NCBI GenBank assembly: GCA_040756715.1
Contig: JBFLYE010000210.1
Coordinates: 1 to 9,997, forward strand
Direction of reading: 5' to 3'
Length of the DNA stretch: 9,997 nt
Source: JBFLYE01 sp040756715 [NCBI: bacterium]
GTDB lineage: Bacteria; UBA9089; UBA9088
Shown: in pieces, positions 1 to 9,997 of the stretch
Layout: every line of letters starts with the position of its first letter
Position numbering within the stretch: position 1 is the first letter of the stretch
Notes under the pieces: generated by a model
Database searches by the model: none
Told to the model about the DNA's origin: nothing
Seen by the model: the letters and a program-made list of their open reading frames with translations, nothing else
Position numbers and translations under genes: made by a program

Positions 1-9
1 CCCCTTTTA

Positions 10-40
10 ATTCAAAATTCAACATTCAAAATTCATAATT
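10..40. repeat. degenerate AT-rich heptamer repeat
   Basis: Four and a half units of a seven-base repeat (consensus ATTCAAA on the plus strand, with variants ATTCAAC and ATTCATA) lie downstream of the btuD stop. The rest of positions 1-115 is AT-rich and I see no gene or convincing terminator in it. The unit differs by one base from the heptamer found inside cobT (6066-6086), so both may belong to one repeat family of this genome. The function is unknown. Confidence 0.6.
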
Positions 41-115
41 TTATAAAGTTTTCCTTAAGATTATCTAAACACATACATTTTGTAAAGCGTTATGTAACTA
101 TAGATACACCATCTT

Positions 116-883
116 TTACTTTGGCACCAGGAATACATAAGGCTTGTGGGTTATGGGATTTTCTCTTACTACAACTATTGTTTTATAGACATCCTCTATG
201 TTTTTTTGGGTTATTACATCATTAGGGTCTCCAATCTTATAGGTCTCTCCATCTTTAAGCAAAAGGAGCCTGTCGCAATATTCAGATGCCAAATTAAGGT
301 CGTGTAAGACAATGAGCACTGTAAGGGAAAGCTCTTTGTTTAATCTTCTTATAAGCTCTAATATCTCTACCTGATGTGTTATGTCAAGGTGAGTGGTTGG
401 TTCATCCAAGAGAAGGAGCTTTGGTTCCTGGCATAAAGCACGGCTTATAAAGGCAAGTTGACGCTCTCCTCCACTTATTTTACTTAAGTATTTCTTTTTA
501 AAACTTATTATCCCGGTTATCTCCATTGCCTCTCTTACCTTCTCTATATCATTCTTTGTTGTAAAGAGAAATCTTTGGTGGGGAATCCTTCCTAGGAGAA
601 CAAGCTCATCTACCCTCATATCAAAGGCAATCTCTTCAACCTGGGAAACCACCCCGACTAGCCTTGCAAATTCTTTAAACCCTATTTTTTTAATCTCCAT
701 TCCATTGAATAATACCCTGCCCTTCTTTATAGGAATTGCCTTGCTTATTGCCCTTAAGAGGGTTGTTTTTCCACTTCCATTTGGCCCAATTATGCCAAAT
801 ATTTCCTCCTTTTTTACCTCAAAGCTTATATCTTTAAGGGAAAATCCATCATAGCCACAAAAAATACCTTCTACCTTTACCAT
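116..883 (-). CDS. btuD: cobalamin ABC transporter ATP-binding protein (BtuD/FecE-type)
   Basis: This cytoplasmic ATPase powers corrinoid import through the BtuC channel. The 255-residue protein has all ABC motifs: Walker A GPNGSGKTT at about residues 33-41, the Q-loop glutamine near 81, the signature SGGER at about 137-141, Walker B LLLLDE at about 156-161, the D-loop near 165-167 and the switch histidine in VLHDLN near 194. Length and motifs match the FecE/BtuD family that serves B12, haem and ferric siderophores. The B12 assignment comes from context: it is the last gene of a btuF-btuC-btuD operon behind a cobalamin riboswitch. Its ATG overlaps the btuC stop by 7 bp, so translation is probably coupled. 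There is only a weak purine-rich ribosome site. Sequence alone cannot exclude a haem or siderophore substrate. Confidence 0.9.
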   Translation of the reverse strand: MVKVEGIFCGYDGFSLKDISFEVKKEEIFGIIGPNGSGKTTLLRAISKAIPIKKGRVLFNGMEIKKIGFKEFARLVGVVSQVEEIAFDMRVDELVLLGRIPHQRFLFTTKNDIEKVREAMEITGIISFKKKYLSKISGGERQLAFISRALCQEPKLLLLDEPTTHLDITHQVEILELIRRLNKELSLTVLIVLHDLNLASEYCDRLLLLKDGETYKIGDPNDVITQKNIEDVYKTIVVVRENPITHKPYVFLVPK

Positions 884-1854
884 TTCTTTCTTATTAAAAA
901 ATAGCTAAATACCAAACCTCCAATGATGCCTGTAATTACACCAACGGGAAGCTGGTAGGGTAAAATTATTGTCCTGGCTATGGTATCACAAAGGATGAGA
1001 AACCCTCCACCTAAAAGCCAGGAGGCAGGAAGGAGAAATCTATAATCCCATCCTATAAAAACACGGGCTAGATGAGGGATAACCAGGCCAACAAACCCAA
1101 TGATTCCAGAAAGAGAGACACAAGAGCCTACCAGGAAGGATGAGATAAAAAAAAGGGCTTTTTTTGTTTTCTCACAATCTATCCCTAGATGCAATGCGGC
1201 TTCCTCGCCAAGCAAAAAGGCATTAAGGGATAGAGAAAATGGCAAAGAGAGAAAAAGACCTAAAATAGAGAAAAAAAGCATTGTTTTTATAAGCCCTAAA
1301 TTTGGCTCCTCTAATGAGCCCATTATCCAAAAGATAATGCCATGGAGGTCTTCCTGCCTTGCTAATGCCATAATCAGCATAATCAAGCCTCCTGAAATAA
1401 AGCTTATCATTACACCAAGCAGCAAAAGGAAGGGAAGGCTGATTATCCTATTTCTTGCCGATAAAAAATAAAGGATAAAAATAACAAGGGATGCACCAAG
1501 AAATCCGCCTAAGGAAAGGGGGAGGCACAAGCCAAAGAGAATGCTTAAGGTAGTTGCCAAGCAAGCACCACCTGATATGCCTAATGTATATGGCTCAACC
1601 AGGGGATTGCGAAATAGCCCCTGAAGGATTGCCCCTGATAAGGCGAGGGATGAGCCACAGGCAAAGCCTAAGATAATCCTGGGAAGCCTTAGGTCAAAGA
1701 GGATAGTATGCTCGGTTGTTTTCTTGCCTTCAAGGATTACCTGAATAATGCGTTTTAAAGAGATTGGATATGAACCAATGCATAGGGAGAGAAGGCTTAT
1801 AAAAAGAATTGCTATTCCTCCTATAAATATCAATACAAGGAATTTCTTAATCAA
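877..1854 (-). CDS. btuC: cobalamin ABC transporter permease (BtuC/FecCD family)
   Basis: This inner-membrane permease is the translocation channel for corrinoids delivered by BtuF. The 325-residue protein is very hydrophobic, with many membrane segments as expected for FecCD proteins. It carries the family hallmarks LRLPRIILGFACGSSLALSG (about residues 55-74), GLFRNPLVEPYTLGISGGA just after it, and GIIGFVGLVIPHLAR near residue 250, a region known to contact the ATPase. The assigned start is TTG at 1854, which overlaps the btuF stop by 8 bp. No ATG or strong ribosome site is visible at that point, so initiation probably relies on coupling with btuF translation. Its stop overlaps the btuD start. 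The family assignment is firm; the B12 substrate is inferred from the riboswitch and neighbours. Confidence 0.9.
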   Translation of the reverse strand: MIKKFLVLIFIGGIAILFISLLSLCIGSYPISLKRIIQVILEGKKTTEHTILFDLRLPRIILGFACGSSLALSGAILQGLFRNPLVEPYTLGISGGACLATTLSILFGLCLPLSLGGFLGASLVIFILYFLSARNRIISLPFLLLLGVMISFISGGLIMLIMALARQEDLHGIIFWIMGSLEEPNLGLIKTMLFFSILGLFLSLPFSLSLNAFLLGEEAALHLGIDCEKTKKALFFISSFLVGSCVSLSGIIGFVGLVIPHLARVFIGWDYRFLLPASWLLGGGFLILCDTIARTIILPYQLPVGVITGIIGGLVFSYFLIRKKW

Positions 1855-2629
1855 TTTCTGGATGTAAAAGCTTTGCTATTTTTTTTAAGGTCTTTGGAAA
1901 GCTTGCCGGAGTTGGACTTCCCAGCGAATGGGCATTAACAATATATATTCTTTTCTTTCCCAATTTTTCCCAATTTCTCTTTTCTTCTTTTCCAAGGATT
2001 CCCATCTCCATAATAATAATGACATCGGGATTATCCTTAATAATCTCCTCCTTGCTATAGGGAGAACTTTCATCTGGACCAATGTTTATCCCACCTCCTA
2101 ATTCAATAAAGTCATTAATCATTGTATCTTTTCCAGAAACCCACAATGGCTCTGCTCCAATTTGAACAATCACACGGGGTTTTACCCTCCCTTTTGTTTT
2201 CTTCTTAACCTCCCCTACCCTCTTCTTTGAAACCTTTACAACCCTTTCTGCCTCCTTCTCTTTTCCTAAAAGCCTACCCAATTCCATAAATTGCTCACAA
2301 AGGCTTAAGAAATTCTTTGGATAGGGAAGCAAAACAACATTTATTCCCAGGCTTTTAAGCTTTTCAAGAGAATCCTTTTTGGTTAATGGTGTAGCCAATA
2401 CCAAATCTGGCTTAAGCCCTACAATCTTTTCCACATCAATACCTACTACGTTTCCAATCCTCTCTTTATTTTTTGCCTTGCAATATGTAGTGCAGGCGAT
2501 AAGGCAATCCTCAGCCTTTAAGAGATAAAGGCTTTCGGTTAGATATGGGCCTAAGGAAATTATCCTCTTTGGCTGCCCAAAGCAAATGCTACATCCTATC
2601 ACTAGGAATCCTAATAAAATTTTTTTCAT
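1847..2629 (-). CDS. btuF: periplasmic cobalamin-binding protein (BtuF-type)
   Basis: This is the extracytoplasmic solute-binding component that hands corrinoids to BtuCD. The 260-residue protein has a short N-terminal signal (MKKILLGFLVIGCSICFG), then RIISLGPYLTESLYLL, the typical opening of class III binding proteins (BtuF/FhuD type), followed by IVGLKPDLVLATP and, in the second lobe, IIKDNPDVIIIMEMG. The signal contains VIGC, which resembles a lipobox, but only 12 residues precede the cysteine, so lipidation is uncertain. The ATG at 2629 has an AGGAGG ribosome site a few bases upstream. The gene lies directly behind a cobalamin riboswitch with a terminator. Its first 15 codons are identical in protein to those of btuB at 9042, within a duplicated cassette. 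Confidence 0.88.
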   Translation of the reverse strand: MKKILLGFLVIGCSICFGQPKRIISLGPYLTESLYLLKAEDCLIACTTYCKAKNKERIGNVVGIDVEKIVGLKPDLVLATPLTKKDSLEKLKSLGINVVLLPYPKNFLSLCEQFMELGRLLGKEKEAERVVKVSKKRVGEVKKKTKGRVKPRVIVQIGAEPLWVSGKDTMINDFIELGGGINIGPDESSPYSKEEIIKDNPDVIIIMEMGILGKEEKRNWEKLGKKRIYIVNAHSLGSPTPASFPKTLKKIAKLLHPEID

Positions 2630-2648
2630 TTTTTCCTCCTTTTACAAC

Positions 2649-2675
2649 AAAAAACCCAACCTTCAAAGATTGGGT
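2649..2675 (-). terminator. riboswitch-associated intrinsic terminator upstream of btuF
   Basis: On the minus strand ACCCAA (2675-2670) pairs with TTGGGT (2659-2654), with a further partly paired inner part, and is followed at once by a run of T. It lies between the aptamer and the btuF ribosome site, the usual place for a transcriptional expression platform. GAAGGT in the hairpin (2664-2659) could instead pair with ACCTTC just upstream (2704-2699), giving a plausible antiterminator. Confidence 0.8.
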
Positions 2676-2805
2676 ATTTGTCTTTTTTCCCTTTCTTGGA
2701 AGGTACTTACCAAAATAAGCAATCGACCGGGCTCTTTTTTTAAAAAATTACCGTTGCCAGACAGCACTCTGAATCTCACAGAGATTTCCTTTGCTTATCA
2801 GGTTT
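2676..2805 (-). promoter_or_regulatory. cobalamin riboswitch aptamer controlling btuFCD
   Basis: The minus-strand RNA fits the cobalamin riboswitch pattern: GGAAATCTCTGTGAGATTC, then GCTGTCTGGCAACGGTAA (compare the family core of CGGTCCCGC, a short spacer, then ACTGTAA), then AGCCCGGTCGATTGCTTA in the place of the B12 box. TAAGCAA (2797-2791) pairs perfectly with TTGCTTA (2722-2716) as a closing helix, which explains why the 3' half of the B12 box deviates from consensus. A terminator follows. In this class ligand binding normally lowers expression, so btuFCD should be repressed when B12 is plentiful. Identification is by motif and context, without a covariance search. Confidence 0.85.
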
Positions 2806-2818
2806 ATCTCTTTATTAT

Positions 2819-2845
2819 TTATGGTGGTTCATCACAACAACCCAT
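2819..2845 (-). CDS. micro-ORF 1 upstream of riboswitch 1 (MGCCDEPP)
   Basis: An eight-codon reading frame starts at ATG 2845 behind AGGAGGTGAT, a full-length match to the anti-Shine-Dalgarno sequence, spaced four bases from the start. It begins 23 bases after the stop of the coiled-coil gene and ends a few bases before the riboswitch. A related micro-ORF sits in the same place before riboswitch 2, sharing the Met-x-Cys-Cys-Asp-Glu start but with one extra in-frame codon and a synonymous GAT/GAC change. That pattern suggests translation is real. It could be a tiny protein, a leader peptide, or only a ribosome-landing site. Confidence 0.45.
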   Translation of the reverse strand: MGCCDEPP

Positions 2846-2868
2846 ATTCATCACCTCCTAATACAAAT

Positions 2869-3276
2869 TTATGTCACAACAGGCTTTAATCCCTCAATTG
2901 CTTCTTTTAAGTCAAAAATTTCTTTCTCAAGGTATTCTTCCCTTTTTGTTATCTCCTTATAATGTTTCATACTCATAGGCCTTTCTTGTTTTGCAAGCCA
3001 TAGAACAGAGCCAACCATTATACCAATAAGGCCAATGATGCTTGAAAGTAAAATATAAAGCCAATGGAACAGCTTATCTATTCCTTCAAACCTTTTATCT
3101 ATTGCTTCAAACCTTTGATCTTGTGCTTCAAATTTAAGATTCATCTCCTTCCTTAATGCACCTACCTCCCTTTGCACCTCCTCCCTTACAATCTTTCTTA
3201 TCTTGTCAATATCATTCTTTGAAAGCTCGGAAAATAGAGGAAGGGAAAAGAGAAGAAAAATTAAACACTTTTTCAT
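2869..3276 (-). CDS. small coiled-coil protein with one membrane segment (copy 1)
   Basis: I do not recognise a named family. The 135-residue protein has a hydrophobic N-terminus (residues 1-16, possible signal or anchor), a charged helical stretch with clear seven-residue repeats (KFEAQDQ, RFEAIDK, RFEGIDK at about 49-69), one strong membrane segment (about 72-94), then a charged helix (about 105-130) ending KPVVT. This suggests a membrane-anchored coiled-coil oligomer. A second copy, about 97% identical in DNA over the visible 230 bases, lies at 9768 to the window end. There is no ribosome site before the ATG; a promoter-like pair at 3285-3314 would start the transcript almost at the ATG. 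No terminator follows, so transcription may run on into micro-ORF 1 and the riboswitch. A link to B12 uptake is suggested only by position. Confidence 0.75.
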   Translation of the reverse strand: MKKCLIFLLFSLPLFSELSKNDIDKIRKIVREEVQREVGALRKEMNLKFEAQDQRFEAIDKRFEGIDKLFHWLYILLSSIIGLIGIMVGSVLWLAKQERPMSMKHYKEITKREEYLEKEIFDLKEAIEGLKPVVT

Positions 3277-3284
3277 AATCTAAA

Positions 3285-3314
3285 ATAATACAAAATCCCT
3301 TTATGACCTGTCCA
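3285..3314 (-). promoter_or_regulatory. candidate sigma-70-like promoter, possibly leaderless
   Basis: On the minus strand TGGACA (3314-3309) and TATTAT (3290-3285) each match the standard -35 and -10 hexamers in five of six bases, with an 18-base spacer. Only eight bases separate the -10 box from the ATG of the coiled-coil gene, so transcription would begin at or within a base or two of the start codon. No ribosome site is visible there, which is consistent. Confidence 0.45.
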
Positions 3315-3404
3315 CCATTTTTTGCTCTTTAGTTTTAGAACCGTTTATCATCCCCTTTTCTCCAAAAATACTACCGGGCAATTAAAATGCCCCTAATACC
3401 TTTT

Positions 3405-4055
3405 TCATTTTAATTTTAGCTCCAAAAGAAGGCGTTTATCCTCCAATGCCTTCTTTCCCTTAATAAACTCAATAGGGTTTTTAAAAATAGGTCCATCATA
3501 GACAAAACTATGGAATTCTCCATTTTCTCCACAGAGGTCAATCGGTAAAGCTTTTAGGTCATTGATAAGCCCTTGGTCAATCTCTCTCCCTAACCATTCC
3601 TTCCCTAGAAAATTGGAATTACAGGCAACAATAATTGCTTTAAACCCAACTCTAATGAACTCAAGCATCAATTCCTCCCTTTCCTTCTTCCATAATGGCA
3701 GGATTGGCTTTATGCCCCCTTCTTTACAAACCCTTTCTACCCAATCCCTGTGTCCTGCTATATCAATATCTCCAAAGATACCTGCGGTAATGCCATATCC
3801 TTTGAGATCCAGAAGGGCCATCTTGAACTCCTCTTCATAGGTCTCCCATAGGGTCTTCCTTTGAAGGATAGGAATCCCTATTGCTTCTGCTTGAGCTTTT
3901 AGCAGATCAGAAGGTATGCCGTGAGAACGGGAGAACCCACCATCCTCTGATACCATATTCAAAAGATAGGCAACCTCAATACCTGAATTTTGCCTTGCCC
4001 TATAACAGGAAAGCGTGCTTTCCTTTCCACCACTCCAGGAGACGAATGCCCTCAT
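3405..4055 (-). CDS. DUF71/Dph6-like ATP pyrophosphatase, putative B12-salvage type
   Basis: This is an adenine-nucleotide alpha-hydrolase family enzyme (COG2102), related to the diphthine-ammonia ligase of archaea and eukaryotes. It has the PP-loop SGGKES near the N-terminus, then HGIP, GDIDIAGHRDWVERVC, LPLWKKEREEL, and GENGEFHSFVYDGPIF near the C-terminus. A frame extending to 4115 exists, but MRAFVSWSGGKES at 4055 fits the family start, and its ATG overlaps the TGA of the upstream zinc-ribbon remnant (ATGA). From 4055 the protein has 216 residues. Bacteria do not make diphthamide; published comparative genomics of this family proposed a bacterial subgroup working in B12 salvage. Its position between cobS and btuFCD agrees with that. 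The exact reaction is unknown, perhaps ATP-dependent amidation of a corrinoid side chain. Confidence 0.8.
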   Translation of the reverse strand: MRAFVSWSGGKESTLSCYRARQNSGIEVAYLLNMVSEDGGFSRSHGIPSDLLKAQAEAIGIPILQRKTLWETYEEEFKMALLDLKGYGITAGIFGDIDIAGHRDWVERVCKEGGIKPILPLWKKEREELMLEFIRVGFKAIIVACNSNFLGKEWLGREIDQGLINDLKALPIDLCGENGEFHSFVYDGPIFKNPIEFIKGKKALEDKRLLLELKLK

Positions 4056-4228
4056 TTTATCACATACCCACAGACCTTGCAGTGGAGGGCATTGAGATTT
4101 ATCCCTGCCCCACAATTAGGACATCCCTTCTCTCCTTCTCTAGGTTGAGGAATATCTCCAATTACCTCCTGGTATATCTTGTAATAATAAAAATGGGCTT
4201 TGTTCATAAACCTGAGTGGCCAATACCT
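4052..4228 (-). pseudogene. C-terminal remnant with zinc ribbon, parent unidentified
   Basis: In the frame one base off the asparagine-synthase-like fragment, an open stretch reads PLRFMNKAHFYYYKIYQEV, then IGDIPQPREGEK, then CPNCGAGINLNALHCKVCG and a TGA at 4052. CxxC-x10-CxxC is a clear zinc ribbon and the segment looks like the tail of a larger enzyme; a radical-SAM-type protein is my guess, not a recognised match. In-frame stops lie directly upstream (4229-4234), so the body of the gene is missing. An internal ATG at 4207 could give a 51-residue protein, but I see no good ribosome site for it. Its stop overlaps the start of the DUF71 gene by ATGA, a natural-looking junction, which suggests that only the 5' part was deleted. 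Confidence 0.5.
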
Positions 4229-4490
4229 TTATTACTTCAGGGATAGCCTCTATGGCTTCATCAATATCTACAGATTTCTGATGGGCTTCTATATTGAGAA
4301 GCCTCACCACAGAGGCAGCATATCTTTTATCTTCTCCATAATCTGCAAGTCTTACTGTGATTGCCTTAAGATTAGGGGAAATACTGGCTAAGATAGCTGA
4401 GTCCAGGCCACCAGAAAGGAGGAGGCCAGAAGCCCTATTCCTCAGGACAGCTTTCATTAACCTCCTCTTAAGCTCAGAAGCTACTTTCAT
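4140..4490 (-). pseudogene. truncated asparagine-synthase-like PP-loop protein
   Basis: The open frame (116 codons) starts MKVASELKRRLMKAVLRNRA and carries the ATP-pyrophosphatase loop SGGLDSAILASI, followed by a typical second strand (KAITVRLADYGEDKRYAASVV) and the helix AIEAIPEVIKVLAT. In this family that helix should lead into the aspartate/arginine-containing substrate region; instead resemblance ends near 4215-4225, and the remaining codons overlap the zinc-ribbon fragment in another frame. The intact domain would be more than twice as long. The ATG overlaps the stop of the cobD remnant (ATGA), so that junction seems ancestral. A truncated product could still be made, but the active site would be incomplete. 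Confidence 0.65.
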
Positions 4491-4597
4491 AACACCTCAG
4501 CCAAGGCAGCAAGAAGTTTTTGATTCTCCTGGTGCGAACGCACAGCCACCCTGATATATCTATCAGAAAGACCCCTGAAATTGCTTAACAACCGATA
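4487..4597 (-). pseudogene. cobD: C-terminal remnant of threonine-phosphate decarboxylase (CobD aminotransferase)
   Basis: Only the last 36 codons survive: SNFRGLSDRYIRVAVR, then SHQENQKLLAALAEVL and TGA at 4487. SNFRGL and RIAVR-type motifs, including the arginine that grips the substrate carboxylate or phosphate, are typical of the end of the PLP enzyme that makes (R)-1-amino-2-propanol phosphate in cobamide assembly; histidinol-phosphate aminotransferase has a similar tail. The B12 neighbours favour CobD. The catalytic lysine and everything before it are missing, and the frame is closed just upstream. It abuts a cbiB fragment in a different frame. Its stop overlaps the asparagine-synthase-like start. 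Confidence 0.72.
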
Positions 4598-4691
4598 TCA
4601 GAAATCCTGCAATCTTAGCTGGGATAAGGTTTGCTAAATCATCTAACTTGGCAGAAAACCAGCCAAAATGGAGGTATCTTTCATCTTTTAG
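4596..4691 (-). pseudogene. cbiB: internal remnant of adenosylcobinamide-phosphate synthase (CbiB)
   Basis: About 32 codons read LKDERYLHFGWFSAKLDD, then LANLIPAKIAGFLI. This matches the strongly conserved CbiB stretch with FGW, ARLDD and N-IPAR-type motifs. The frame is plus one relative to cobS and overlaps the last codons of cobS. Neither the start nor the rest of the gene is present; the frame runs on to a TGA at 4563 after resemblance has stopped. It joins the cobD tail almost exactly where the match ends. CbiB attaches aminopropanol to cobyric acid, so it and cobD are functional partners, and both have been lost here by deletion. Confidence 0.72.
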
Positions 4692-5400
4692 ATAAAGGAA
4701 CAATAGATAAAAGTGTTGCAACCTCAATCACCTCAGATAGGGCACCCAAGGTATCTCCTGTAAAACCACCTACTCTCTTTTTGAGATAGAGGCTGAATAA
4801 CCAGGTTATCCCTGATGTTGTTGCCAAGAGGTAGAAGAAACTCAGGCCAAATAAGGAAAACCCTATTCCCATCATTATCAGGGTTGCCCAAAGGAATTCC
4901 CTTCTTTTTACTTGGCCAACAAATAGTCTTCCCAAGCCAGAAGACTTGGGATAGGAAGATGTTGCTGCTCCTGCCACCATAGCCCATCGCCCCATAGTTG
5001 GGGCAATGAGCAGGCCAGAACTTGTATTTGCTGAAAGAGCAAAGGTCTTTATCAAAAGCAGACAGACCACTGCCACCACTCCTTTGCAGCCTACAGCAGA
5101 CTCCTCTATTATCCTAAAGATTTCCTCTTTGCTTCTCCCTCCTGCTAAGCCATCTATGGTATCGCAGAAGCCATCTAAATGTAGGCAGCCAGTGATGGCT
5201 ACCCAGGCTGCTATCACCAAAACAGAGACAAGGTCAGGAGGAAAAAGTTGAAGGCTGAAGAATCTCACTCCCACCAAGAATCCACCGATTAATAAACCAA
5301 CCAAAGGGAAGAAGACCATTGATCTGGCTAGATCCTCTGTTTGATAGGTCTTAACAGGGATGATGGTTAGAAGCCCTATGGTTGTGAGGAATTGCCTCAT
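4681..5400 (-). CDS. cobS: adenosylcobinamide-GDP ribazoletransferase (CobS)
   Basis: This integral membrane enzyme performs the last joining step, combining adenosylcobinamide-GDP with alpha-ribazole or its phosphate. The 239-residue protein has several hydrophobic segments and the conserved acidic motif LHLDGFCDTIDGLAGG (about 73-88; D76, D80 and D83 probably bind metal), followed by EESAVGCKGVVAV, and FTGDTLGALSEVIEV near the C-terminus. Length is normal for the family. Its ATG overlaps the cobT stop (ATGA), implying coupled translation. The last few codons overlap the cbiB remnant in another frame, so the extreme C-terminus may have been reset by the deletion, but the conserved parts are intact. 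Confidence 0.93.
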   Translation of the reverse strand: MRQFLTTIGLLTIIPVKTYQTEDLARSMVFFPLVGLLIGGFLVGVRFFSLQLFPPDLVSVLVIAAWVAITGCLHLDGFCDTIDGLAGGRSKEEIFRIIEESAVGCKGVVAVVCLLLIKTFALSANTSSGLLIAPTMGRWAMVAGAATSSYPKSSGLGRLFVGQVKRREFLWATLIMMGIGFSLFGLSFFYLLATTSGITWLFSLYLKKRVGGFTGDTLGALSEVIEVATLLSIVPLSKR

Positions 5401-6440
5401 TTTTTCTTAGAGACACCCGCTGAAGCAAAGGTGGCCATCTGGGTTAGGATCTTGCAGGCTGCCTCAATCAAGGATATCCCTAAAGCTGCTCCTGTTCCTT
5501 CTCCTAACCTAAGATTCAGATCTAAAAGGGGGATTAGGCCTAAATTATCTAAGACAATCTTGTGCCCTATCTCTACTGAACAGTGGGCAGCAAATAGATA
5601 ATCTTTTGCCTTTGGCTCTAAGCCAACAGCAATCAAAGCAGCTGCTCCTGAGATGAAGCCATCTAAAACCACGGGTATCTGATGGGCAGATCCTGCTAAG
5701 ATCACACCGGCTAAGCCTCCAATCTCAAAGCCACCTACCTTAGAGAGGACATCTATCGGATCTTTGGGATCAGGCTGATTGATCTCCAATGCTCTTTCAA
5801 TCACCTTGATCTTATGGGCAAGGGTATTATCATCTATGCCTGTTCCTCTACCTGTGACCTTTTCTGGTGATTGACCGGTCATCACAGCCACAATGGCAGA
5901 AGAAGGGGTGGTATTGGCAATCCCCATATCGCCAGTTCCTACAATATCAATCCTTTCTTCTTCAAATACTTCAATCCCTGCCTCAATCGCCCTTATAGCT
6001 TCCTCTCTGCTCATCGCAGGCCCTTTAGCAATATTGTTAGTCCCATGCCCAATCTTCTTATTTTTTAGTTTTGAGTTTTGAGTTTTTAGCTCTTCTGCTA
6101 CTCCCATATCCACAACTACCACCTCAGCTCCCACATGCCTGGCCAGGACATTTATTCCCGCACCACCTGCCAGGAAATTATAGACCATCTGAGGGGTGAC
6201 CTCAGCAGGATAAGCAGAAACCCCCTCCTCTCCTACTCCGTGGTCTCCGGCCATAGTGAAGATTACCTTTCTTTTTAAGTCTGGCTCTCTATTGCCTGTA
6301 ATTCCTACCACCCTATTGGCTATTTCCTCCAATCTTCCCAGGCTCCCTTGGGGTTTGGTCAGGGTATCTTGCCTCTTTTGCGCCTCTTCCATCAACCCAA
6401 GATTAACTGGCTCAATCTTCTTCAATATCTCTTCTAACAT
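5397..6440 (-). CDS. cobT: nicotinate-nucleotide--dimethylbenzimidazole phosphoribosyltransferase (CobT)
   Basis: This cytoplasmic enzyme transfers phosphoribose from nicotinate mononucleotide to a lower-ligand base such as 5,6-dimethylbenzimidazole. The 347 residues are near the usual length. Visible motifs are KPQGSLGRLEEIA (about 29-41), AGDHGVGEEGVSAYP (about 64-78), GIANTTPSSA, and RLGEGTGAAL near the C-terminus, in which E314 corresponds to the catalytic glutamate. Residues 119-129 (KTQNSKLKNKK) come from a heptamer DNA repeat and sit just before the conserved IGHGTNNIAKGPAM, in a place where relatives vary. The start has a strong AGGAGGTGAG ribosome site inside the end of cobU, which it overlaps by 7 bp. 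It is coupled to cobS. No base-synthesis gene is seen, so the base may be scavenged. Confidence 0.94.
   Translation of the reverse strand: MLEEILKKIEPVNLGLMEEAQKRQDTLTKPQGSLGRLEEIANRVVGITGNREPDLKRKVIFTMAGDHGVGEEGVSAYPAEVTPQMVYNFLAGGAGINVLARHVGAEVVVVDMGVAEELKTQNSKLKNKKIGHGTNNIAKGPAMSREEAIRAIEAGIEVFEEERIDIVGTGDMGIANTTPSSAIVAVMTGQSPEKVTGRGTGIDDNTLAHKIKVIERALEINQPDPKDPIDVLSKVGGFEIGGLAGVILAGSAHQIPVVLDGFISGAAALIAVGLEPKAKDYLFAAHCSVEIGHKIVLDNLGLIPLLDLNLRLGEGTGAALGISLIEAACKILTQMATFASAGVSKKK
6066..6086 (-). repeat. coding heptamer repeat within cobT
   Basis: The coding strand carries AAAACTC, AAAACTC and AAAACTA in tandem, then an A-rich tail. Translated it gives the low-complexity KTQNSKLKNKK. The unit differs by one base from the heptamer near the left end of the window (AAAATTC at 10-40). 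Confidence 0.7.
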
Positions 6441-6946
6441 CTCTCACCTCCTTTTATTTTAACAGGTATCCCTGCTACCATAAGATAGACCTCGTCTGCT
6501 ATCTGGGCCATCTGGTGATTCACCACTCCAGCCATATCTCGAAACTCCCTGGCCAATCTGTTATCTGGAACAATACCAGATCCAACCTCATTGGAGACAA
6601 CAATTGCTGTTTTCTTAACCTTCTTTAGGGCAGAAAACAGATCCTTGCTTGCCTCTACTACATCCATTTTGGCCTCCATTAGATTGGCGATCCATAAGGT
6701 GAGACAGTCGATAATAATTACCGAAGTAGTGATCTTGGCAATAACCCTTGACAGATTCAGGCTCTCTTCAACTGTAGACCACTCTTTTGGCCGCATCTTT
6801 TTGTGTTCCTCTATTCGTTCCCTCATCTCACTATCAGTAGAGATGCAGGTAGCAACAAAGGTGACCTGGTCACCTCTCTCTTTAGCCAGCCAGATCGCAT
6901 ACTGACTCTTTCCACTCCGTGCACCGCCAGTGATAAAGATGATCAT
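6434..6946 (-). CDS. cobU: bifunctional adenosylcobinamide kinase / guanylyltransferase (CobU)
   Basis: CobU phosphorylates adenosylcobinamide and then transfers GMP to it, making the activated corrinoid used by CobS. The 170-residue protein begins with a P-loop GGARSGKS (7-14), has RIEEHKKMRP with H48 as the likely guanylylated histidine, the DCLTLWIANL motif (80-89), and SNEVGSGIVP followed by LAREFRDMAGVVNHQMA. These are diagnostic and the length is normal. The kinase step allows salvage of imported cobinamide, the natural entry point here since cbiB and cobD are broken. Its ATG overlaps the btuB stop (ATGA), and its end overlaps cobT by 7 bp, so it is translated as part of one polycistron. 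Confidence 0.94.
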   Translation of the reverse strand: MIIFITGGARSGKSQYAIWLAKERGDQVTFVATCISTDSEMRERIEEHKKMRPKEWSTVEESLNLSRVIAKITTSVIIIDCLTLWIANLMEAKMDVVEASKDLFSALKKVKKTAIVVSNEVGSGIVPDNRLAREFRDMAGVVNHQMAQIADEVYLMVAGIPVKIKGGERC

Positions 6947-9042
6947 TGGACAAAGAAAGAATAGATCCAGCCAACCCTTCCATCTGAAAGCCTGACCTTA
7001 TAATACTCTTCAGATCTCTCCAATACTTCAAGCTCTCTCCCTTTATTGACTGTGGTAATAAGCTGGTAGGTGCCTGGTTCTTTCCAGATCCCTGCTCTCT
7101 CTTCTTTGACAACGACTGTTTGCTTGGGTTTCTCAGACTCTGTTTGCTTGGGTCTTTCAAGCTTAACTTTTGCTTTTTTGCTCTTAGGAAAATCTATCTT
7201 GGTCCCAGCATAGAAGAAGCGACCAAAGGTGCTATAGCCTTTTACTTCTTCATACTCTGTGCCAAAGATATTTTCTACCCCCAAGAATAGAGAAAGCCAG
7301 TCTGTCAGATTATAAGATGTATTCAGGTTTACCAGTGTATAAGGAGAGAGTATAGTGTAGCCAATATCTTTCCTCTCGCCTACATAGATACAATCAAGAT
7401 TGATGTGGGTATTTTTAAGAGAATAGCCAAGGGTGAACGCCGCCTTCTGTTTTGGTCTCCTGAGAAGCTCCTTACCCGTATCTTTGTCCTCTGTCTGGGT
7501 ATAAGTGTAGTTTACCTTGACTTTCAAATCACTGGTTGGCCTGATATGAAAAAGGATTTCAACACCACCTGTTTCTGCCTGACCGATATTTTTATATTTC
7601 CAACTGCTGTGATCAAAATCTATCATATTCTTGAATTCATTCTGGAAGCAGGTAAGACCAAGCAGCATCCTTTCTCCAATCTCCTGTTCGATACCAATCT
7701 CATAGCCTATTGACTCATCTGGCTTAAGGTTTGGATCTCCATAGCTTGAGTGCAACTGATAAAGCGATGGGGCCTTGAATCCAGTAGCATAATTTGCTCT
7801 GATTTTGGTCTTTTCAGTTACCCAGAGGGAAGAGACCTTATAGGTTGTCTTCTGGCCAAACCTTGAGTGGTCATCGAGCCTGAGACCTGCCCAAAAGGCA
7901 AGATTTTCTCCCTTTAGCTCTCCCTGAAGATAGTATCCCGTATTGGTTTCCTTCTTCTTCTTGAACTCATCTGTCCATGGCCCCCACTCACTCTCTGAAT
8001 GGTAGTAGGACTTTCCCTCCTCCTTTTCATACTCAATTCCAGAGACAAGGCCAATATCAAGCGGCTCTATCTCCCTAGATAGGTTTTGCTGCCAGGTAAC
8101 CTTAGTATTCTTTCCCTCACACCAGGAACTAGAGGAATTAAGAGGCTCTATGGTATCCGTTCCATCTTCATATTCCCTTCTTACCTTGTGGAGCGATAAG
8201 TCTACTTTCTCTTTTAGCCATAAAGTTGGGGTTGCCTCCAATCCTCCTTTGATGGCTAAGCTCTCGCTCTTGCTTGTATAGTTGGGATCATCATCTGAGG
8301 CACCATCGTCAATATCAAAGTCTGCCTTGTTATAATAGGCTGAAATACCAGCTCTAACCTGTTGAGAAGGAGAAAACCCGAGATTGCCCAAGATAGTGGT
8401 GGCATGATAGCCATCTGTCTCTGTGCCTTCTGCTGCCTTAGAGATACCGCCAGAATCCTGTCTGCTGACTGAGAAGGCATAATCAAGGAGACCTGCTCTT
8501 CCACCTATTTCTGCCCTCTCCTGATAAGTATTGTATTGGCCTCCTTTGGCTGATGAAGAGAAGCTTGGTTTCTCCCCTTTTTTAGTGATGATATTTATCA
8601 CCCCACCTATTGCGTCAGAGCCATAGAGGATTCCCTGTGGACCACGGACTATCTCAATTCGTTCAACACCTGCTAATGGAAGATGGGCAAAATTAAACCC
8701 TCGACCAGCTGAGATGGGATCATTGACCTCCACACCATCAATCATCACCAGGGTGTGCTCTGACTTTGCTCCCCTCAAGAAGCAACTCGCAATTCCCCCT
8801 AAAACACCAGTCTCCACAATATCAAGGCCAGGCATACCTCGTAAGGCCTCAATCACTCTCTCTGCTCCTGATCTCTCAATCTCCTCTCTGGTGATCACGG
8901 TAACCGAAGTTGGAATCTCTTTCACCTTCTCCTCACTTCTACTGGCCGTGACCACAATCTCTTCCCCTACCACAGTTATTGTTCCCTCAGAGCCAAAAAT
9001 GCTACATCCTATCACTAGGAATCCTAATAAAATTTTTTTCAT
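6943..9042 (-). CDS. btuB: TonB-dependent outer-membrane corrinoid receptor with C-terminal SH3 domain
   Basis: This is a 699-residue outer-membrane transporter. After a short signal identical to the BtuF signal over 15 residues come a TonB-box-like EEIVVTASR (about 27-35), the plug domain (about 40-155, with LVMIDGVEVND, VERIEIVRGPQGILYGSDAIGGVINI) and a long beta-barrel ending near 619 (RFFYAGTKIDF). A Lys/Pro/Gln-rich linker with two PKQT units follows, then about 54 residues (GIWKEPGTYQLITTVNKGRE through YYKVRLSDGRVGWIYSFFV) with the look of a bacterial SH3 domain. Ordinary BtuB ends at the last barrel strand, so this extension is unusual; it should face the periplasm. The B12 substrate is inferred from the cobalamin riboswitch directly upstream and the coupled cobU-cobT-cobS genes. 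The ATG has an AGGAGG ribosome site. Confidence 0.9.
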   Translation of the reverse strand: MKKILLGFLVIGCSIFGSEGTITVVGEEIVVTASRSEEKVKEIPTSVTVITREEIERSGAERVIEALRGMPGLDIVETGVLGGIASCFLRGAKSEHTLVMIDGVEVNDPISAGRGFNFAHLPLAGVERIEIVRGPQGILYGSDAIGGVINIITKKGEKPSFSSSAKGGQYNTYQERAEIGGRAGLLDYAFSVSRQDSGGISKAAEGTETDGYHATTILGNLGFSPSQQVRAGISAYYNKADFDIDDGASDDDPNYTSKSESLAIKGGLEATPTLWLKEKVDLSLHKVRREYEDGTDTIEPLNSSSSWCEGKNTKVTWQQNLSREIEPLDIGLVSGIEYEKEEGKSYYHSESEWGPWTDEFKKKKETNTGYYLQGELKGENLAFWAGLRLDDHSRFGQKTTYKVSSLWVTEKTKIRANYATGFKAPSLYQLHSSYGDPNLKPDESIGYEIGIEQEIGERMLLGLTCFQNEFKNMIDFDHSSWKYKNIGQAETGGVEILFHIRPTSDLKVKVNYTYTQTEDKDTGKELLRRPKQKAAFTLGYSLKNTHINLDCIYVGERKDIGYTILSPYTLVNLNTSYNLTDWLSLFLGVENIFGTEYEEVKGYSTFGRFFYAGTKIDFPKSKKAKVKLERPKQTESEKPKQTVVVKEERAGIWKEPGTYQLITTVNKGRELEVLERSEEYYKVRLSDGRVGWIYSFFVQ

Positions 9043-9061
9043 TTTTTCCTCCTTTTAAAAC

Positions 9062-9088
9062 AAAAAACCCAACCTTCAAAGATTGGGT
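9062..9088 (-). terminator. riboswitch-associated intrinsic terminator upstream of btuB
   Basis: This hairpin has the same sequence as the one before btuF: ACCCAA (9088-9083) pairs with TTGGGT (9072-9067), followed by six T. It stands between the aptamer and the btuB ribosome site and probably decides read-through. Confidence 0.8.
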
Positions 9089-9220
9089 ATTTGTCTTCTT
9101 TTTTCCCTTTCTTGGAAGGTACTTACCAAAATAAGCAATCGACCGGGCTCTTTTTTAAAAAATTACCGTTGCCAGACAGCACTCTGAATCTCACAGAGAT
9201 TTCCTTTGCTTACTCGGTTT
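9089..9220 (-). promoter_or_regulatory. cobalamin riboswitch aptamer controlling btuB-cobUTS
   Basis: The conserved elements are the same as in copy 1, including GCTGTCTGGCAACGGTAA and AGCCCGGTCGATTGCTTA, with TAAGCAA (9212-9206) pairing TTGCTTA (9138-9132). The linker before the terminator is three bases longer than in copy 1 and the internal T run one shorter; both changes fall in unpaired tracts. Both transport operons should therefore respond to the same ligand over a similar range. Confidence 0.85.
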
Positions 9221-9226
9221 TTTTAA

Positions 9227-9271
9227 TTACTTTCCGCCCTTATCTTCTTTTTCGTCACAATAACAATCCAT
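9227..9271 (-). CDS. micro-ORF 2 upstream of riboswitch 2 (MDCYCDEKEDKGGK)
   Basis: A 14-codon frame starts at ATG 9271 with GGGGGTGAT upstream as ribosome site; this site overlaps the stop of the protease gene. It ends just before riboswitch 2. The start aligns with micro-ORF 1 (Met-x-Cys-Cys-Asp-Glu) with one extra TAT codon between the cysteines, then diverges to a charged tail. Cysteine pairs with acidic residues could bind a metal, but nothing shows this. It may instead be a leader peptide or chance. Confidence 0.45.
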   Translation of the reverse strand: MDCYCDEKEDKGGK

Positions 9272-9284
9272 ATTTATCACCCCC

Positions 9285-9656
9285 TTAAACTAAAAATAAT
9301 TCTATTGGCTTTAATTCACCTGTGGTTGTATCAACGCTTAAAGCCATCCCCTCTATGGTAAGCAATCCTAAAAGCTCAACATCTTCTTCTTCGCCAAAAA
9401 TTACATCCGAACCACCCACGCCTTTACCATTTAGGGCAAAACAAGCAATCCCATAATCCCTTTCCATAACTTTACCATTGGCAAGCTTTAAACGCTTTTT
9501 TCCAATTATAGATATACCTATTCTCTTTAGTCTATCCTTTTTAATTACAGAAAATGCTGCCCCTGTATCAATTACTACATCAATTTCTTCATACCTTGAG
9601 ATATCAATCGGATTTGCCACCCTTACCCTTGTCTTTAAGATCAAATCTTCCTTCAT
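9285..9656 (-). CDS. retropepsin-like aspartic protease (clan AA)
   Basis: The 123-residue protein resembles single-domain bacterial retropepsin-type proteases, which act as homodimers. It shows the active-site motif VVIDTGAAFSVI with D30-T31-G32-A33, a flap-like middle (LKLANGKVMERDYG), and the second hallmark LLGLLTIEGMALSVD (about 95-109), ending with a TGEL-type turn common in this family. Length is normal, and no signal peptide is visible, so it is probably cytoplasmic. The substrate is unknown. It lies between coiled-coil copy 2 and the btuB riboswitch, a place where copy 1 has no counterpart, which suggests insertion here or loss there. No ribosome site is visible before the ATG. Confidence 0.8.
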   Translation of the reverse strand: MKEDLILKTRVRVANPIDISRYEEIDVVIDTGAAFSVIKKDRLKRIGISIIGKKRLKLANGKVMERDYGIACFALNGKGVGGSDVIFGEEEDVELLGLLTIEGMALSVDTTTGELKPIELFLV

Positions 9657-9662
9657 AATAAA

Positions 9663-9692
9663 AGAATAACAAATCCTTTTCTAATTTGTCAA
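9663..9692 (-). promoter_or_regulatory. candidate sigma-70-like promoter for the protease gene, possibly leaderless
   Basis: A perfect -35 TTGACA (9692-9687), an 18-base spacer and a four-of-six -10 TATTCT (9668-9663) lie directly before the protease ATG at 9656. Transcription would start about at the ATG, matching the lack of a ribosome site. The rest of 9657-9767 shows no clear gene or terminator. Confidence 0.45.
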
Positions 9693-9767
9693 GCATTATT
9701 TCTAAACCCAAAGGGGAATTTTAAGAAAATACACATATCTACTCACCTTATGACAAGAGAACTCCAT

Positions 9768-9997
9768 TTATGCCACAACAGGCTTTAATCCCTCAATTGC
9801 TTCTTTTAACTTAAAAATTTCTTCCTCAAGGTATTCTTCCCTTTTTGTTATCCCCTTATAATGTTTCATACTCATAGGCCTTTCTTGTTTTGCAAGCCAT
9901 AGAACAGAGCCAACCATTACACCAATAAGGCCAATGATGCTTGAAAGTAAAATATAAAGCCAATGGAACAGCTTATCTATTCCTTCAAACCTTTTAT
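9768..9997 (-). CDS. small coiled-coil/membrane protein (copy 2, 5' part outside window)
   Basis: Only the C-terminal 75 or so residues are visible, and the gene runs off the right end. It has the same coiled-coil end (KRFEGIDKLF), membrane segment and charged C-terminal helix as the gene at 2869-3276. By eye six bases differ in about 230, giving five amino-acid changes (such as I to V in the membrane segment and a final Ala for Thr), and the frame is intact. Both copies lie upstream of a micro-ORF and a cobalamin riboswitch, but here the protease gene intervenes. The function is unknown. Confidence 0.72.
   Translation of the reverse strand, partial: KRFEGIDKLFHWLYILLSSIIGLIGVMVGSVLWLAKQERPMSMKHYKGITKREEYLEEEIFKLKEAIEGLKPVVA

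What the first reader, a model, noticed from the sequence alone, without database searches (positions are those of the whole stretch)
2584..9220. One riboswitch-plus-signal-peptide cassette drives two unrelated genes
About 220 bp at 2584-2805 and 8997-9220 are nearly identical and include riboswitch, terminator, ribosome site and the first 15 codons (MKKILLGFLVIGCSI). The downstream proteins, BtuF and BtuB, are not homologous. The copy boundary lies inside both coding regions, so one gene received a whole control-and-secretion cassette, with the signal peptide exchanged in frame. This is a direct example of how a riboswitch can spread to a new operon. Near-identity implies recent duplication or ongoing gene conversion.
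Basis: seen in the sequence. Interest (0 to 1): 0.72.

Follow-up and report, generated by a model that had tools for sequence, protein, structure and literature searches.

The report
Shared B12 riboswitch–signal-peptide leader
In an uncultured bacterium, two different vitamin B12 uptake proteins start with the same copied stretch of DNA, a B12-sensing RNA switch plus the first 15 codons; relatives suggest that one protein came to sit behind the other's leader and that the two leader copies are kept alike by recombination.

Summary
Minus-strand 2797-2584 and 9212-8997 match at 212 of 217 columns and hold aptamer, P13, terminator, ribosome site and 15 identical codons of a BtuF-like and a BtuB-like gene. 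No 80-mer recurs in the window, so mis-assembly is unlikely. The RNA is a relative of AdoCbl riboswitches with strong covariation, below Rfam cut-offs. The copied unit is larger than reported: an upstream gene (dupP) is duplicated too (226/232), with unlike sequence between it and cassette 2. Same-genus G001 also has two dupP-riboswitch units in a similar setting; dupP ends and aptamers are more alike within each genome than between genomes, suggesting patchy gene conversion. In G001 the leader precedes btuB; btuF lies two genes downstream with its own signal peptide. So the leader was probably BtuB's, and btuF most simply reached it by an in-frame deletion, not by a riboswitch jumping to a new operon. 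Another family of the phylum shows a mirror case: a riboswitch-led BtuF-BtuB fusion and a BtuB with a BtuF remnant. Deletion versus conversion, and the owner, are inferred; the signal peptide letters alone do not decide.

The parts
2684..2805 (-). Riboswitch copy 1 (AdoCbl-class aptamer plus P13), before btuF-like gene
   Evidence: R1 model hit, E 2.7e-27 (this sequence was in the model); RF01689 23.5 bits, below its cut-off of 36.5
2654..2675 (-). Intrinsic terminator hairpin of copy 1, overlapping the proposed antiterminator
   Evidence: energies
2585..2629 (-). Shared first 15 codons in the btuF-like gene (MKKILLGFLVIGCSI)
   Evidence: 45/45 identical to 9042-8998
1847..2629 (-). BtuF-like periplasmic binding protein, chimeric N-terminus
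   Evidence: Peripla_BP_2 E 3.1e-30; NCBIfam BtuF 85.5 bits, below its cut-off of 234
877..1854 (-). BtuC-like permease
   Evidence: FecCD E 3.2e-86
116..883 (-). BtuD-like ATPase
   Evidence: ABC_tran E 8.1e-31
9100..9220 (-). Riboswitch copy 2 (AdoCbl-class aptamer plus P13), before btuB-like gene
   Evidence: R1 hit, E 1.9e-26 (also a model member); RF01689 24.1 bits, below cut-off
9067..9088 (-). Intrinsic terminator hairpin of copy 2
8998..9042 (-). Shared first 15 codons in the btuB-like gene
6943..9042 (-). BtuB-like TonB-dependent receptor with a C-terminal SH3_3 domain
   Evidence: Plug, TonB_dep_Rec_b-barrel, SH3_3; TIGR01779 318.7 bits, best family, below its cut-off of 599.7
2869..3276 (-). 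dupP, small protein of unknown family, copy 1, upstream of riboswitch 1
   Evidence: ORF; no Pfam or NCBIfam match; homologues in 14 of 19 phylum genomes
9768..9997 (-). dupP copy 2, cut by the contig end
   Evidence: 226/232 nt identical to copy 1
2819..2845 (-). Tiny ORF MGCCDEPP between dupP and riboswitch 1
   Evidence: sequence; pattern found next to the riboswitch in G000, G001, G002
9227..9271 (-). Diverged tiny ORF MDCYCDEKEDKGGK before riboswitch 2
   Evidence: sequence
4061..8943 (-). Higher-GC block: btuB body, cobU, cobT, cobS and fragments of cbiB, cobD, asnB
   Evidence: GC 44.9% against 38.3% (1-4055), 35.0% (9043-9997) and 37.1% in 49,994 bp of other G000 contigs; fragments

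Best explanation
The shared block is the leader of B12-uptake operons: a transcription-attenuating, AdoCbl-class OFF riboswitch, then the ribosome site and a signal peptide. With corrinoid bound, the L5-L13 kissing contact holds P13, the terminator forms and transcription stops; without it, the 5' side of P13 pairs with the 3' half of the terminator and transcription goes on. The leader lies downstream of a small gene (dupP) and a tiny ORF, and this whole unit occurs twice in the genus. Recombination between the two units (patchy gene conversion) keeps parts of them alike within a genome. In an ancestor resembling same-genus G001, the second unit led btuB-diph2-btuF; in the window lineage an in-frame deletion from about codon 15 of btuB into the end of btuF's signal-peptide region removed that btuB and diph2 and left btuF behind btuB's leader and most of its signal peptide. 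Shown: the two copies, the in-frame junctions, the G001 order, the segment identities, the covariation. Inferred: ligand and OFF behaviour, gene conversion, deletion as the route, and BtuB as first owner.
For: Copies and junctions. G001 order dupP-tiny ORF-riboswitch-asnB-cbiB-cobD-diph-dupP-tiny ORF-riboswitch-btuB-diph2-btuF. Window BtuB codons 16-33 match G001 BtuB at 51 of 54 nt and the P13+terminator of copy 1 matches G001 copy 1 at 56/59, so the leader is flanked by btuB sequence on both sides in both genomes; G001 btuF has another signal peptide and no ribosome site of its own. Within-genome against between-genome identity: dupP end 222/228 (G000), 224/228 (G001) against 200-204/228; aptamer 90/94 and 93/94 against 75-78/94; the 70-nt spacer of G000 copy 2 matches copy 1 at only 39/81. 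Mirror case: G010 riboswitch-led BtuF-BtuB single frame and G005 BtuB with a BtuF remnant. RNA: 18 of 32 pairs with changes on both sides, 93.7% of cells paired, 0 of 500 shuffles as high. Terminator state -14.5, antiterminator state -13.9 kcal/mol. Same logic tested by mutation in the P. megaterium metE riboswitch (PMC10653944, passages read).
Against: The 15 signal-peptide codons themselves are hardly closer to G001's BtuB (26 of 45 columns) than to G001's BtuF (23 of 45); ownership rests on the flanks and on G004's BtuB codons 1-6 (18/18). G017 (another family) has riboswitch-diph-btuF-btuC-btuD without btuB, and in G001 btuC-btuD lie on another contig, so the ancestral operon is not certain and G001 may be the derived one. 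P13+terminator is not homogenised in G001 (49/61). The window riboswitches miss Rfam's cut-offs. Promoter-like matches are no more than in shuffles at 2500-3500 (3 against a mean of 2.8).
Confidence: 0.52

Rival explanations
1. Gene conversion did it all: a tract running from the riboswitch before btuB through the ribosome site replaced btuF's own leader and most of its signal peptide, without any deletion of btuB and diph2 at that place.
For: dupP and aptamer are more alike within than between genomes, both genes start ATGAAAAA, and G017 has a riboswitch before diph-btuF-btuC-btuD without btuB, so btuFCD may always have had its own riboswitch.
Against: G001 has btuB between the same riboswitch unit and btuF; no homology is visible beyond codon 15 to end such a tract (21 of 57 columns).
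Confidence: 0.28
2. Separate recent segmental duplications of dupP-riboswitch in each species, with no gene conversion.
For: Explains within-genome identity as well.
Against: Both genomes have the second unit directly after diph, which needs the same insertion twice; in G000 copy 2 two alike tracts flank about 545 bp of unlike or extra sequence including another ORF.
Confidence: 0.12
3. Assembly or binning artefact: the repeat made the assembler join unrelated pieces.
For: The genome is a 218-contig draft and the contig ends inside the dupP repeat.
Against: No 80-mer is repeated in the window, the longest exact cassette match is 62 nt, the copies differ, and the sequences beyond the junctions are intact frames.
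Confidence: 0.04
4. The cassette is ordinary strong conservation of a riboswitch and a signal peptide, not recent copying.
For: Riboswitch aptamers are conserved across the phylum (15 of 19 genomes with a model hit).
Against: The 45 coding nt are identical within G000 but only 26 of 45 columns against the same-genus BtuB.
Confidence: 0.02

Closest known systems
AdoCbl / AdoCbl-II riboswitches (Rfam RF01482, RF01689, clan CL00101)
   Same: Homologous aptamer; six hits in relatives pass the RF01482 cut-off (18 loci searched); P1, P5-like and P13 helices and a kissing contact covary.
   Different: The window's own copies score 24.1 and 23.5 bits with RF01689 against a cut-off of 36.5; the kissing contact is G-C in 5 and C-G in 9 of 14 sequences at one pair.
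Repressing transcriptional corrinoid riboswitch of Priestia megaterium metE (PMC10653944, passages read)
   Same: P13 held by the L5-L13 kissing loop lets the terminator form; an alternative antiterminator exists.
   Different: [quoted passage not shown] and here the leader runs on into a shared signal peptide. Untested at the bench here.
Leader/5'-cassette reuse in surface-protein systems (Mycoplasma vsa, Bacteroides SusC shufflons; recalled, from no call)
   Same: Control region plus start of a secreted protein shared by several downstream bodies.
   Different: Here there are two direct repeats, no invertible array was seen in the window, and the control element is a riboswitch.
B12 riboswitches with small upstream ORFs in Mycobacterium tuberculosis (PMC11260477, abstract and section list seen)
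   Same: A short ORF is associated with a B12 riboswitch.
   Different: There the ORFs act on the downstream gene (metE, ppe2); here the tiny ORF precedes the aptamer and its function is unknown.

Membership tests
AdoCbl-class riboswitch (RF01482 / RF01689) | Score over the family's gathering cut-off | tested here: not met
   RF01689 24.1 and 23.5 bits against 36.5 for the two window copies; RF00174 no match in the own genome. Six hits in relatives pass RF01482.
AdoCbl-class riboswitch (RF01482 / RF01689) | Conserved, covarying aptamer structure | tested here: met
   18 of 32 pairs with changes on both sides, 0 of 500 shuffles as high, slid controls 34-55% paired against 93.7% (14 sequences that I chose, not all 25 hits; one of them from G093, outside the phylum).
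AdoCbl-class riboswitch (RF01482 / RF01689) | L5-L13 kissing contact | tested here: inconclusive
   Three-pair register chosen as the best of several; 83.3% of cells paired, one pair C-G in 9 and G-C in 5, one pair unpaired in 7 of 14.
AdoCbl-class riboswitch (RF01482 / RF01689) | Binds a corrinoid | not testable with these tools
   Needs in-line probing or a reporter.
Transcription-attenuating expression platform | Terminator hairpin with T-run and a competing antiterminator | tested here: met
   Hairpins at 2675-2654 and 9088-9067; antiterminator -13.9 against -14.5 kcal/mol (computed for copy 1).
BtuF (NCBIfam NF002894) | Score over the equivalog cut-off | tested here: not met
   85.5 bits against 234; so called BtuF-like, from Peripla_BP_2 and context.
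BtuB (TIGR01779) | Score over the equivalog cut-off | tested here: not met
   318.7 bits against 599.7, best of 34 families; so called BtuB-like, from plug and barrel and cob-gene context.
Cob genes cobU, cobT, cobS | Score over NCBIfam equivalog cut-offs | tested here: met
   CobU 204.3 against 161 (NF004469), CobT 458.8 against 319.3 (TIGR03160), CobS 136.1 against 110 (TIGR00317; NF001278 at 153 was below its 252).
Gene conversion (concerted evolution) | Copies at the same places in two species are more alike within each species, in patches | tested here: met
   dupP and aptamer yes; spacer of G000 copy 2 and terminator of G001 copy 2 no. Only two species; event not observed.

The most novel reading that the evidence does not exclude
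The riboswitch-signal-peptide leader is a fixed slot behind which the bodies of B12-uptake genes are exchanged again and again in this phylum by in-frame deletion, fusion and conversion: BtuF behind BtuB's signal peptide (window), two diverged BtuB bodies behind one N-terminus (window and G001), BtuF fused whole to BtuB (G010) and BtuB behind a BtuF remnant (G005), so that one RNA switch and one secretion signal evolve as a single portable unit.
Probability: 0.33. Interest if true: 0.62.

Novelty: new variant of a known kind. Interest (0 to 1): 0.47.

Why it matters
How a riboswitch comes to control another gene is usually inferred from distant comparisons. Here near-identical copies in one contig, with a same-genus genome for comparison, give a traceable case in which the unit includes the coding start, so regulation and protein targeting change together. 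The case also suggests that a gene may move to a riboswitch rather than the reverse, and it exposes a BtuF-BtuB fusion that can be tested at the bench.

Tried and rejected
Rejected: a transposable riboswitch. I saw no terminal repeats of an element round the cassettes in the repeat search, and only two full copies exist in the genome.

Rejected as over-read: my earlier idea that the window's BtuB body is a foreign part behind a native N-terminus. The conflict is real: N-terminal codons 13-33 are 58/63 identical to G001, against 833/1665 for codons 37-620, and 0 of 527 body windows reach the N-terminal identity. But G004 also shares the N-terminus (50/63 with G000, 52/63 with G001) and groups with G000 by body (95/88 support, 24-row tree). 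So G001's BtuB may be the recombinant instead. GC (44.9% against 35-38%) hints at foreign origin, but the same genes are GC-rich in G003 and G017 too.

Led nowhere: Pfam and NCBIfam for dupP; MAFFT alignment A3 mixed strands and was not used; the literature searches for BtuB-BtuF fusions and for riboswitch gene conversion or concerted evolution listed nothing on point. They cover only the held open-access library, and I read listings only, except PMC10653944 and PMC6944388 (passages) and PMC11260477 (abstract and section list). One search gave P. gingivalis and antigen-variation papers, seen as listings only. Organism: not identified; relatives in genome contigs bear only labels such as 'bacterium' or 'Nitrospira sp.'.

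Full report
What is there. The window is the whole of contig C210 (9,997 bp) of a draft genome of 1.55 Mb in 218 contigs. All genes of interest are on the minus strand. In order of reading: end of dupP copy 2 (cut by the contig end), a small aspartyl-protease-like ORF (9656-9285; Asp_protease_2), a tiny ORF, cassette 2, a BtuB-like receptor, cobU, cobT, cobS, fragments of cbiB, cobD and asnB, a Dph6-like ATP pyrophosphatase (diph), dupP copy 1, a tiny ORF, cassette 1, and BtuF-, BtuC- and BtuD-like genes.

The repeat. The first 15 codons are identical and the following 54 nt are not alike (21 of 57 columns). A second repeat, 226 of 232 identical, covers the end of dupP. Between dupP and the cassette lie 61 bp in copy 1 and 545 bp in copy 2, and the 70 nt just before the aptamer match at only 39 of 81 columns. 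No 80-mer recurs, and the longest exact matches are 62 and 77 nt, which is why I trust the assembly. Elsewhere in the genome only short matches of 26-39 nt exist.

The RNA. Rfam gives AdoCbl-II below its cut-off (24.1 and 23.5 against 36.5 bits) and no RF00174 match in the genome. Related leaders in the phylum pass RF01482 in six places in 18 loci searched. On 14 sequences that I chose, 18 of 32 pairs change on both sides, 93.7% of cells pair, and 0 of 500 shuffles reach the observed score; control slides pair at 34-55%. The structure came partly from the same alignment, which favours it. A model built from these sequences finds 25 places in 15 of 19 phylum genomes. A kissing contact is likely but weak at one of its three pairs (7 of 14 unpaired). 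Terminators follow both aptamers. The sequence ACCUUCCAAGA near P13 can pair with UCUUUGAAGGU of the terminator; for copy 1 this antiterminator state folds at -13.9 and the terminator state at -14.5 kcal/mol. This fits an OFF switch by attenuation like that dissected in P. megaterium metE (PMC10653944, passages), although the pairing partners differ. Ligand and direction were not tested.

The relatives. In same-genus G001 the order is dupP, tiny ORF, riboswitch, asnB, cbiB, cobD, diph, dupP, tiny ORF, riboswitch, btuB, diph2, btuF. So two dupP-riboswitch units exist in a comparable setting in both genomes. In segments: the end of dupP is 222/228 alike within G000, 224/228 within G001 and 200-204/228 between them; the aptamer is 90/94 and 93/94 within and 75-78/94 between; the P13-terminator part is 56/59 between G000 copy 1 and G001 copy 1, but only 49/61 within G001. 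Tracts of different extent are homogenised in each genome, as patchy gene conversion would leave. Separate duplications would need the same arrangement twice.

Who owned the signal peptide. In G001 the riboswitch leads btuB, while btuF lies two genes downstream, overlaps the preceding gene's stop and has another signal peptide. Window BtuB codons 16-33 match G001 BtuB at 51 of 54 nt. G004's BtuB starts with the same six codons (18/18) and a similar SIFG...GEEIVVTA stretch, with a BtuF-like gene upstream rather than a riboswitch. Against this, the 15 codons alone match G001's BtuB at 26 and its BtuF at 23 of 45 columns, which decides nothing. I therefore favour BtuB as owner from its flanks, and a deletion in an operon like G001's as the route by which btuF reached the leader. 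Counter-evidence is G017's riboswitch-diph-btuF-btuC-btuD and G001's btuC-btuD on another contig without btuF, which leave the ancestral order open. Of 10 genomes whose BtuF-like starts I listed (17 of 19 phylum genomes have a match), only the window's start equals the BtuB-like start of its genome.

A second discordance. BtuB bodies fall into two types: G000, G004, G003, G017 (100/100) and G001, G002 (100/100) in a tree of 24 rows. DNA identity between G000 and G001 is 58/63 for codons 13-33 but 833/1665 for codons 37-620, and none of 527 body windows is as alike as the N-terminus. So the N-terminus and body of at least one of the two genes have different histories. Which one is the recombinant I cannot say. 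G003 and G017, of different families, are 86% identical in the body while same-genus G003 and G004 are 69%, so this btuB type has probably moved between lineages.

A mirror case. In family f3, G010 has a riboswitch followed by one 890-aa frame with Peripla_BP_2, Plug and TonB barrel; G005 has a riboswitch followed by a BtuB-like receptor whose first part matches only positions 1-40 of Peripla_BP_2 (the latter is below the Pfam cut-off, 19.1 against 27.5). This looks like a fusion and a later in-frame deletion. In family f8, G014 carries a 236-bp riboswitch block twice, 97.9% identical, before a BtuB-like receptor and before a different ORF, so copying of riboswitch leaders also occurs there without a signal peptide.

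Verdict. It is a new variant of a known kind: riboswitch, duplication, gene conversion and gene fusion are all known, while their combination in a shared riboswitch-signal-peptide leader was not met in the held library in the searches. I score interest 0.47.

Noticed in passing
L083:504-3176 (G010) and L086:4742-6781 (G005): Riboswitch-led BtuF-BtuB single-frame fusion, and a BtuB-like receptor with a BtuF N-terminal remnant.
   Followed up: partly
window 6943-7080 (BtuB-like aa 655-695): The BtuB-like receptor has a C-terminal SH3_3 domain (E 1.1e-7) after the barrel; G001, G003 and G004 receptors end at 608-627 aa.
   Followed up: no
window 2845-2819 and 9271-9227; G001, G002 leaders: A tiny ORF with a ribosome site just before the riboswitch, MGC(xx)CDEPP in G000, G001 and G002 (4 exact pattern hits in 5 genomes, reversed-pattern control 0); diverged in window copy 2.
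   Followed up: partly
L079 (G014:C61, about 13235-13470 and 16299-16533): A 236-bp block with promoter-like sequence, riboswitch and terminator occurs twice, 97.9% identical, before two different genes.
   Followed up: partly
window 4061-4690: Fragments of asnB, cbiB and cobD (full length in G001) remain between cobS and diph.
   Followed up: partly
L091 (G017:C259): A dupP relative lies between a truncated-looking and a fuller riboswitch, so dupP keeps company with the riboswitch in another family.
   Followed up: no
L092 (G000:C127, near the contig end): A dupP fragment follows a corrinoid/methyltetrahydrofolate-type methyltransferase-like ORF (name recalled from its sequence, not searched) after a ribosomal-protein run.
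   Followed up: no
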